Of a DNA stretch of 51,856 bases, positions 26,901 through 31,052 are shown one piece after another. This DNA comes from Acidobacteriota bacterium (GTDB lineage: Bacteria > Acidobacteriota > Vicinamibacteria > Fen-336). A program made the position numbers and the translations under genes. The DNA is taken from assembly GCA_003222275.1 (NCBI GenBank), contig QHVJ01000151.1, positions 1 to 51,856 of the forward strand, written 5' to 3'. The notes beneath the pieces are model-generated. The model did no database searches and had not been told where the DNA came from. It was given only the letters and a program-made list of their open reading frames with translations. Every line of letters begins with the position of its first letter. Position 1 is the first letter of the stretch.

Positions 26901-29900
26901 TTCGAGCGCGCCCTCGTTCTTTCCGACGACGCCGCGGCCACCGTACAGGTGGTGGTCTCCTCCGACAGCCCGAGTACGGCTACCTTCCGAGTCTCGGGCC
27001 GGGAGGCAAGCGGGGAGGCAAGGACCGGGGCCTGGACCCTTCACGCGAAGGGAGCGATCCGTCTCGGCGTCGCAACTGAGCAACGAGACGCCGCACCCCG
27101 GGCCGCCTCGGAACCGTCCGCTGAAGCGACGGTGCCCGCTTCCGCGCACTACCAGGCCATGGCCGCCCGTGGCTTGAGCTACGGCCCCAGTTTCCAGGGC
27201 GTGGAGCGGGTGTGGCGCCGTGAGGGCGAAACGCACGGGCGACTGCTGGTCACCGCAGGCATGCAGGCCGACGCTGCCGCCTACCGCATCCACCCCGCTC
27301 TCCTCGAGGCCGCATTCCAGCTCCTGGTGGCGGCGGCCGCGGGGACCGACGCCGGCGCGGCCGGCGACGAGACGCTCGTGCCGGTAGGCCTGGATCACCT
27401 CCAATTGCAGACCGCTGTGGATCCGACCCGGCCGTTGTGGGGTCGGGCCTCCCTGCGGGCCGGGTCCGGCACCGCCGGCAACGAGGTGGTCGGCGACGTT
27501 GTCATTCGGGATGACGAAGGTCGCCGTGTGCTCGAGGCCCGCGGCGTGCGGCTGCAACAGCGGGGTGAGGGCCGCCAGCGCCAGCTGGACGACTGCTTCT
27601 TCGGGATCGAGTGGGAAGCCGCTCGGCGGGATGGGACCGCGCTCCCGCCGGCCAGCCATGGACAGTGGCTCGTCTTCGCCGGGGCGACGCCGGTAGGTGC
27701 GAGGCTGGCCTCAGCCTTGGCCGACCGCGGCGATCGAGTCGTGACGGTGTTCGCGGGCGAGGACTACGCGAGGCTTGACACGGGGCGCTACCGCATCGAC
27801 CCCGCGCGGCCTGAACACTTCCGTCGGCTGCTCACGGAGGCGCGGGATACGGGCGGCGGTTCCTGGCGCGGCATCGTCCACCTGTGGAGCCTCGATGCGC
27901 CGGACCCCTCGGAAGGAGGTCTCGCTGCCCTCCAGGAGGCGCAGAGGCTCGGCTGTGTGAGCGTCCTGCATCTGGTGCAGGCGCTGGCCGGTGGGGAGCC
28001 CGCGTCGTCGCCACGGATGTGGCTCGTGACCGCGGGTACCCAGCCGGTCGAGCGCCTCGACGACGCGCTCTGCCCGGCCCAGAGCCCCCTGTGGGGACTC
28101 GGCCGCGTCGTCGCCAGCGAACACTCCGCGCTGCGCTGCTCTGCGATCGATCTTTCGCCGAGGCCCAGCGACGCCGACCTGCGTTCGCTTCAGGACGAGC
28201 TGTGGCAGAACGGCGCCGAAGATCAGATCGCCTTGCGCGGTGACGCGCGTTATGTGGCGCGCCTCCGGCGGCGGCTGCCGAAAGAGACGGCCCCGCACGT
28301 CCCGGCAGCCGCGCCGCGGTTGGAGCCTGCGATCGAGATCGACGCGGCGGTCGCGGTCGTGCCGGACGGGACCTACCTCATCACGGGGGCGCAGGATGGC
28401 CTCGGCCTGCAGGTCGCCGTGTGGCTGGCCGGGCGGGGCGCCCGGCACATAGCTCTGCTGGGGCGGAGTGGCCTGACCGTCGCCGCCAAGGAGGGTGTCG
28501 ACGGCCTGACCAGGGCGGGTGTTCAGGTCAGGTTGATCCGTGCCGATGTGGCCGACGAAGCCGAGCTCGCGCGGGCACTGGCAGAGGTGGACGGCGCGAT
28601 GCCGCCCCTGCGCGGAGTCATCCACGCGGCCGCGATCCTCGACGACGCACCGCTACTGGAGATGGACCGGCCGCGCCTCGACGCGGGAATGGCGCCCAAC
28701 GTTGCGGGAGGCTGGAACCTCCACGTCCAGACCGCGGGCCGCGCGCTCGACTTCTTCGTCCTTTTCTCCTCGGCGGCGGGACTGCTTGGCGCGCCTGGTC
28801 ATGCCGGCCGTGCCGCGGGCGACGCGTTCCTCGGCGCCCTCGCCGCGCATCGACGCGCCCGGGGCATGCCCGCGCTCTCGGTCGCCTGGGGTTCGTGGAT
28901 CGCGGGCGACGCGGCGGTCCCCGAGGTGGCCGCGCAGCGGCTCGACGAGTGTGCCTACGTCGTCGACTGGCCTCGCAAGGAACGCGATACACGGAAAGCC
29001 CCCGCGTCAGAAGGGCCCGCCAGCTGGCTGATCCTCGCCGACCGCAGCGGCGTGGGAGTGGCCCTCGCGAGGCTCCTCCGCGAGCGTGGCGACACCTGCA
29101 CGATGCTCTTCGCCGAGGACGTCGGGTCGACCGAGATGTTGGGCCGCGTGCTGCGTGAGGAGTGGAAGTCCGACGGCGTGCTCCGCCGGGGCGTCGTCCA
29201 CTTGTGGAGCCTCGACGCCCCTCCGACGGACGAGCTGAGCCCGGCGTCCCTGGACGCCGCTCAGCACCGCGGCTGTGTGAGCGCCCTGCACCTCATCCGG
29301 ATGCTGGCGGCAGCCGGCGGGCCTCGGCTCTGGCTGGTGACGCGAGGGGCGCAGCCGGCCGGCCCGTCGCCGTCATCGGTGGCCGTGGCGCAGGCGCCTC
29401 TGTGGGGTCTCGGCCGTGTCCTCGCCCTCGAGCAGCCCGAGTGCTGGGGAGGACTCGTAGACCTCGACCCGGGCGAGGACGCCGACGCCGCGCCGCGGCT
29501 GATGGAGGAGCTCACCCAGGCCGACGGCGAGGACCAGGTGGCCTTCCGCCGGGGGGAGCGGCGGGTGGCCCGACTGGTGCGCGCGCCGCTAGAGAACGAA
29601 GCGGGGGCGGGTCTGTCCGAGGGGACCTATCTAGTCACCGGAGGCGTGGGCGGCCTCGGCTTGCAGGTGGCGCGCTGGCTCGTGGAGCGAGGGGCCCGCC
29701 ACCTCGTCCTCACGAGCCGGACGGGCCTGCCCGCGCGCTCGCGGTGGGACGAGCTGGCGGGGACCGCGCGTGAGCGTGTCGAGGCGATTCGCGCTCTCGA
29801 GGCCCTCGGCGTCTCGGTGACGGTGGCCGCTGCCGACGCCAGCGACGCCGCCGCGATGGCCCGGGTGTTCGAGACCTTCGGACGGGCGCTGCCGCCACTG

Positions 29901-31052: not shown

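What the first reader, a model, noticed from the sequence alone, without database searches (positions are those of the whole stretch)
27591..30350. Tandem ketoreductases in PKS1, first dead, second A-type
Two full KR units (structural plus catalytic halves) lie in a row. The first has Tyr to Arg1611, Asn to Asp1615 and a damaged cofactor loop, and lacks its C-terminal tail. The second is intact, lacks LDD (it reads LTL), and has Trp eight residues before Tyr2041, which predicts an A-type (L-hydroxyl) product. This looks like a domain duplication in which a B-type KR (LDD retained) was replaced by an A-type KR, switching stereochemistry while keeping the fossil.
Basis: partly seen in the sequence, partly recalled or inferred. 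Interest (0 to 1): 0.68.

Follow-up and report, generated by a model that had tools for sequence, protein, structure and literature searches.

The report
Ketoreductase inserted inside a dying ketoreductase
In this bacterial polyketide assembly line a new, intact ketoreductase has been spliced into the middle of an older one, which has lost its active site and its partner enoylreductase; this probably changed the module's product from a fully reduced carbon to an alcohol and left the replaced part behind as a fossil.

Summary
The two ketoreductase (KR) units are real, but they are not a duplication. PKS1 (23979-31052) reads KS-AT-DH-KR1-KR2-ACP. KR2 is complete, lacks LDD and carries W2033. A syntenic cluster in a family relative (G010) shows the probable earlier layout: module A is KS-AT-DH-KRs-ER-KRc-ACP with an intact LDD-type KR, followed by module B, KS-AT-KR-ACP. 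KR1 is sister to G010-A's KR and KR2 to G010-B's KR (100/100 each); making KR1 and KR2 sisters is rejected (AU p = 2.75e-5). KR1's tail is not missing: it lies after KR2 (2143-2216; 52% identical to G010-A's tail, E = 2e-17). So a B-lineage KR of about 490 aa was inserted into KR1 between its catalytic core and its tail. The enoylreductase is gone, leaving a double-length linker, and the DH aspartate is Glu1110, unique among 25 DHs. A third syntenic cluster (G260) has one KR2-like KR and a truncated DH. Inference: a fully reducing module became hydroxyl-forming, probably L. Two-KR modules and KR swaps are known; this nested, half-decayed state with both comparison states available is a new variant.

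The parts
23979..31052 (+). PKS1 gene (P0001, 2357 aa): KS-AT-DH-KR1s-KR1c-KR2s-KR2c-(KR2 tail)-(KR1 tail)-ACP
26691..27575 (+). DH domain; His938 motif HRVDGLRVLP kept, catalytic Asp replaced by Glu1110 (codon at 27306)
   Evidence: all 24 other DHs aligned have Asp
27588..28289 (+). KR1 structural half (59% identical to G010-A)
28290..28367 (+). Linker between the halves of KR1: probable scar of a deleted ER, with pre-ER and post-ER sequence of G010-A joined
   Evidence: 32 aa against 9-19 aa in 36 of 40 ER-less KRs
28368..28904 (+). KR1 catalytic half, dead: Lys to Asn1574 (28698), Tyr to Arg1611 (28809), Asn to Asp1615 (28821); LDD and Ser1598 kept
   Evidence: sister of G010-A KR 100/100
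28905..28943 (+). Upstream insertion junction (breakpoint not resolved more finely)
28944..29582 (+). KR2 structural half (63% identical to G010-B)
29622..30194 (+). KR2 catalytic half, complete: K2004, S2028, Y2041, N2045; LTL1984-1986 in place of LDD; W2033
   Evidence: sister of G010-B KR 100/100
30195..30404 (+). KR2's own C-terminal tail
30405..30626 (+). Displaced C-terminal tail of KR1
   Evidence: best match is the tail of G010-A's KR, 52% over 73 aa, E = 2e-17
30693..30890 (+). ACP of module A descent (87% identical to G010-A's ACP)
31065..38789 (+). PKS2: N-terminus, KS and AT orthologous to G010-B (71% over 940 aa), but carrying DH-MT-ER-KR where G010-B has only the KR2-type KR

Best explanation
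A module that once read KS-AT-DH-ER-KR-ACP, with a B-type KR, received by recombination a complete KR (structural half, catalytic half and tail) of the lineage found in the next module of the syntenic cluster. It landed in frame inside the resident KR, between that KR's catalytic core and its C-terminal tail. The resident KR1 lost Lys, Tyr and Asn, the ER was deleted, and the DH Asp became Glu. The module now most likely uses KR2 alone and hands on a beta-hydroxyl, predicted L (A-type), where the older form made a saturated carbon. Shown: the anatomy, the lineages of both KRs, the displaced tail, the absent ER and the lost residues. Inferred: direction and order of events, inactivity of the DH, configuration of the alcohol, and whether the donor was the cluster's own module 2.
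For: Syntenic G010 cluster with DH-ER-KR module A and KR-only module B. KR1 sister to A's KR and KR2 to B's KR, 100/100 each; a KR1+KR2 clade rejected, p-AU 2.75e-5. KR1 tail displaced behind KR2's own tail and the longest KR-to-ACP distance of 50 modules, 167 aa. ACP and tail are from A (87% and 52%), KR2 from B (60-63%). ER scar. Triple active-site loss, unique in 62 KRs; 13:2 excess of departures at conserved sites, p = 0.007. DH Asp to Glu unique in 25. PKS2 keeps the orthologous KS-AT of module B but no longer the B-type KR, and no other PKS-type KR lies elsewhere in the genome.
Against: Only one close relative (G010) supports the prior state, and its ER carries a frame-breaking deletion. 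The direction is by parsimony; G260 shows KR2-like KRs in module 1 elsewhere in the phylum. A-type prediction has moderate accuracy outside actinobacteria (PMC11228615). Glu may leave some DH activity. No reads, product or expression data.
Confidence: 0.77

Rival explanations
1. Tandem duplication of one KR inside the module, followed by divergence and death of the first copy.
For: Two KR units adjacent in one module.
Against: KR1 and KR2 are sisters of two different modules' KRs, 100/100 each; joint clade rejected with p-AU 2.75e-5; a simple duplication does not place KR1's tail after KR2's tail.
Confidence: 0.03
2. Fusion of two neighbouring modules by deletion of ACP-KS-AT between KR1 of module A and the KR of module B.
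For: A and B are adjacent in G010 and in the right order.
Against: After KR2 come KR1's tail and an ACP of A descent (52% and 87%), not B's ACP, and the KS-AT of module B still exists as the start of PKS2. A second crossover back into A would be needed, which amounts to insertion.
Confidence: 0.1
3. KR1 is not a mere fossil: the dead KR1 is kept as a structural scaffold holding DH and KR2, its displaced tail folding back on it around the inserted KR2.
For: No frameshift or stop; KR1c is still 67% identical to G010-A with dN/dS 0.24 and KR1s 0.32, similar to other domains.
Against: 13:2 excess of departures at conserved sites in KR1c. dN/dS averages both lineages and cannot date the loss. The structure model was too poor to show docking (mean pLDDT 47). 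Compatible with the best explanation as its present-day state.
Confidence: 0.3
4. Assembly artefact: sequences of different loci or strains misjoined.
For: Draft genome of 628 contigs; repeated PKS domains are prone to misassembly; no reads available.
Against: Two junctions, both in frame; KR1 active site decayed; ER missing; DH mutated; no other locus in the genome with a PKS-type KR above 90 bits. Misjoining would not remove active-site residues.
Confidence: 0.04
5. The DH still works, so the module makes an alkene (Z expected from an L-alcohol) rather than a hydroxyl.
For: DH is full length with its His motif intact; A-type KR plus DH is linked to Z alkenes in general accounts (PMC11228615).
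Against: Catalytic Asp is Glu1110, unique among 25 DHs; the sister cluster G260 with a KR2-like KR has lost the second half of this DH.
Confidence: 0.25

Closest known systems
Modules with two KR domains in cis-AT PKSs (excluded as 'unconventional module compositions' in PMC11228615)
   Same: Two KRs in one module before one ACP
   Different: Here one KR is nested inside the other, whose tail is displaced and whose active site is gone; the paper gives no anatomy for its cases, so they could not be compared in detail
KR replacement in mycolactone F (mls PKS, PMC2569948)
   Same: A-type/B-type KR exchange between modules of one cluster, attributed to recombination
   Different: There the replacement is clean (A-type KRs no longer present); here the old KR remains as a broken domain around the new one, and the oxidation level changes as well
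G010 contig C242 cluster
   Same: Syntenic: DUF218, thioesterase, PPTase, PKS-A, PKS-B; orthologous KS, AT, DH, KR1 and ACP
   Different: Intact LDD-type KR with ER and no nested KR; the KR2 lineage sits in module B
G260 contig C43 cluster
   Same: Thioesterase-PPTase-PKS1 order; first KS in the same exclusive clade; KR2-like KR with W in module 1; module 2 is DH-MT-ER-KR as in the window
   Different: Single KR, only half a DH, B-like ACP, no KR1 remnant

Membership tests
PKS ketoreductase (PF08659), KR1 | Fold/sequence match over the curated cut-off | tested here: met
   195 bits against a cut-off of 22.6
Active reducing KR, KR1 | Catalytic Lys-Ser-Tyr-Asn | tested here: not met
   N1574, S1598, R1611, D1615
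Active reducing KR, KR2 | Catalytic Lys-Ser-Tyr-Asn and TGGxGxxG | tested here: met
   K2004, S2028, Y2041, N2045, TGGVGGLG
A-type KR, KR2 | No LDD, Trp eight residues before Tyr | tested here: met
   LTL and W2033
A-type KR, KR2 | Makes the L-beta-hydroxyl | not testable with these tools
   Needs an enzyme assay or the product
A2 subtype, KR2 | His three residues before Tyr | tested here: not met
   Leu2038; the motif is not conserved outside actinobacteria (PMC11228615)
B-type ancestry, KR1 | LDD motif; close to a B-type KR | tested here: met
   LDD kept; sister G010-A KR has LDD
Tandem duplication of one KR | KR1 and KR2 are each other's closest relatives | tested here: not met
   Trees and AU test
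Nested domain insertion | Host domain continues on both sides of the insert | tested here: met
   KR1 core before and KR1 tail after KR2
Fully reducing module | DH, ER and KR all present | tested here: not met
   No ER in PKS1
Functional DH | HxxxGxxxxP and the Asp of HPALLD | tested here: inconclusive
   His motif intact, Asp replaced by Glu1110; no activity data

The most novel reading that the evidence does not exclude
This is a captured intermediate of a general 'insert first, decay later' route by which assembly lines change a module's oxidation level and stereochemistry: a new KR is inserted at the core/tail hinge of the resident KR without breaking the module, the resident KR becomes a scaffold, and ER and DH are then lost. 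The hinge would be a naturally tested insertion site for PKS engineering.
Probability: 0.33. Interest if true: 0.72.

Novelty: new variant of a known kind. Interest (0 to 1): 0.56.

Why it matters
How modular PKSs change one reduction step without breaking the line is an old question, and natural swaps are mostly seen as finished, clean replacements. Here the replaced KR, the scar of the lost ER, the displaced tail and the mutated DH are all still readable, and two syntenic clusters show a DH-ER-KR form and a single KR2-like form. That makes the order of events testable and points to the KR core/tail hinge as a place where nature has inserted a whole second KR in frame.

Tried and rejected
Tandem duplication: rejected by tree and AU test. 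Simple two-module fusion by one deletion: my first idea, set aside because tail and ACP belong to A. Junction repeats as a mechanism: the longest word shared by the two junction regions is 9 bases, shuffles average 7.8 and reach 12. Nucleotide-skew repeats: no marked skew block at the KR junctions. AlphaFold model of KR1-KR2-tail with a two-row alignment: mean pLDDT 47, not interpretable, so docking of the displaced tail was not assessed and no fold search was made. The search for related loci in genome contigs gave only two Streptomyces loci with single KRs. Literature searches for tandem, KR-KR, second or extra KR domains found no described nested case; the library holds only open-licence papers, so this is weak evidence of absence.

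Full report
What is in the sequence. The window is one whole contig (C481, 51,856 bases) of a draft genome of 6.76 Mb in 628 contigs. It carries a cis-AT modular PKS cluster: PKS1 (23979-31052), PKS2 (31065-38789; DH-MT-ER-KR), PKS3 (38734-43521; KR), PKS4 (43523-50119; DH-ER-KR) and the start of PKS5, cut by the contig end. PKS1 reads KS-AT-DH-KRs-KRc-KRs-KRc-ACP in one open frame.

Residues. KR1 (catalytic half 1464-1642) has Asn1574 for Lys, Ser1598 kept, Arg1611 for Tyr and Asp1615 for Asn; LDD is kept and the loop is TGAQDGLG. KR2 (1882-2072) has K2004, S2028, Y2041, N2045, TGGVGGLG, LTL for LDD, W2033 at -8 and Leu at -3. By the usual motif rules (Caffrey; Keatinge-Clay; restated in PMC11228615) KR2 is A-type without the A2 histidine. 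The same paper warns that outside actinobacteria the A-type prediction has only moderate accuracy and that the H motif is not conserved in Myxococcota and Cyanobacteriota, so only 'probably L-hydroxyl' is claimed.

The comparison that decides it. Searching related genomes gave one close relative cluster, G010 contig C242. It is syntenic: DUF218, type II thioesterase, PPTase, then PKS-A and PKS-B in the same order. G010-A is KS-AT-DH-KRs-ER-KRc-ACP with a complete KR (LDD, K, S, Y, N); G010-B is KS-AT-KR-ACP. Window PKS1 matches G010-A in KS (77%), AT (83%), DH (57%), KR1s (59%), KR1c (67%) and ACP (87%). Window PKS2 matches G010-B from its N-terminus through KS and AT (71% over 940 aa), after which the two differ.

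Insertion, not duplication. Window residues 1645-2140 align with the KR of G010-B, including its start (AYVVDWPRKER against TYVVEWPRRER) and its tail. Residues 2143-2216, after KR2's own tail, are the tail of KR1: the best match is the tail of G010-A's KR, 52% over 73 aa, E = 2e-17. The distance from the catalytic half to the ACP is therefore 167 aa, the longest of 50 modules, 48 of which lie at 91-109. In a tree of 52 KRs (structural + catalytic halves) KR1 is sister to G010-A's KR and KR2 to G010-B's KR, both 100/100. Forcing KR1 and KR2 together costs 143 log units, p-AU 2.75e-5. KR2 is thus a KR nested inside KR1.

Loss of the other reductive steps. The linker between the halves of KR1 is 32 aa by profile ends, against 9-19 in 36 of 40 KRs without an ER between the halves. 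It keeps sequence found before and after the ER in G010-A, as expected from excision of an ER. The DH keeps its His motif but has Glu1110 in place of the Asp present in all 24 other DHs aligned. KR1c departs from conserved sites 13 times on the window side against 2 on the G010 side (p = 0.007), while KS, AT and ACP show no such excess. Average dN/dS of KR1c is 0.24; it averages over both lineages, one of them functional, so it neither excludes a recent loss nor proves a kept scaffold.

A third state. G260, from another family of the phylum, starts with thioesterase, PPTase and PKS1 in the same order. Its first KS falls in the same exclusive clade as those of the window and G010 (SH-aLRT 100), but the module has only the N-terminal half of a DH, one KR2-like KR with W, and a B-like ACP; its second module is KS-AT-DH-MT-ER-KR, as in the window. 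So module 1 of this cluster family exists as DH-ER-KR (G010), as dead KR1 with nested KR2 (window), and as a single KR2-like KR (G260). G260's junction lies in the DH, so it is a separate end-point, not a direct descendant of the nested form. The congener G001 has no orthologous module (best match 43%), so the cluster is patchy.

Origin of KR2. KR2 and G010-B's KR differ about as much (0.63 changes per site) as KR1 and G010-A's KR (0.67), which fits a move within the cluster after the two lineages split. PKS2 now carries a DH-MT-ER-KR loop in place of that KR, and no other PKS-type KR remains in the genome outside this contig above 90 bits. The KR may therefore have been moved rather than copied; this is inference, and the genome is 94% complete.

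Function. KR1 lacks Tyr and Lys, so it should neither reduce nor epimerise (from established KR mechanism). With KR2 the only complete reductase, no ER in the module and a doubtful DH, the most likely output is a beta-hydroxyl, predicted L. If the DH still works, an alkene is the alternative. The older form presumably delivered a saturated carbon. G010's own ER carries a small frame-breaking deletion (real or an assembly error), so its present product is uncertain, but an ER clearly stood there.

Artefact. Two junctions, both in frame, decay of the KR1 active site, a missing ER and a DH mutation are not what a misassembly makes. Reads were not available, so this remains an argument, not a test.

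Novelty. Modules with two KRs are known to exist (PMC11228615 excludes them as unconventional), and KR exchange by recombination is known (mycolactone F, PMC2569948). A KR nested in a dead KR with its tail displaced was not found in the papers searched, which cover only open-licence literature. I file it as a new variant of a known kind.

Noticed in passing
window 31065-38789 (PKS2 KR) and loci L059, L060, L062, L072, L073, L061: The KR of PKS2 has His where the catalytic Tyr stands. The same Tyr-to-His change is in the KRs of 5 of 6 modules with both MT and ER in this set, and hardly elsewhere: a possible rule of methyltransferase-containing reducing modules, function untested.
   Followed up: partly
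L041 (G010:C242) about 6380-6420, minus strand: The ER of G010's module A carries a small deletion that breaks the frame; either a real defect or an assembly error.
   Followed up: partly
L043 (G010:C285) about 7240-7710: A second KR of G010 gives two split profile matches, as if part of its catalytic half were missing.
   Followed up: no
window 51856: The PKS cluster runs off the contig end inside PKS5, so product length and release are unknown.
   Followed up: no
window 18768-19895, minus strand: An aspartyl/asparaginyl beta-hydroxylase-like protein lies near the cluster, upstream of the thioesterase (21694-22563) and PPTase (22560-23393).
   Followed up: no
window 45001-48000: PKS4 has a marked GC skew (+0.18) compared with the rest of the cluster; perhaps nucleotide-skew repeats as described for PKS genes, not tested.
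   Followed up: no
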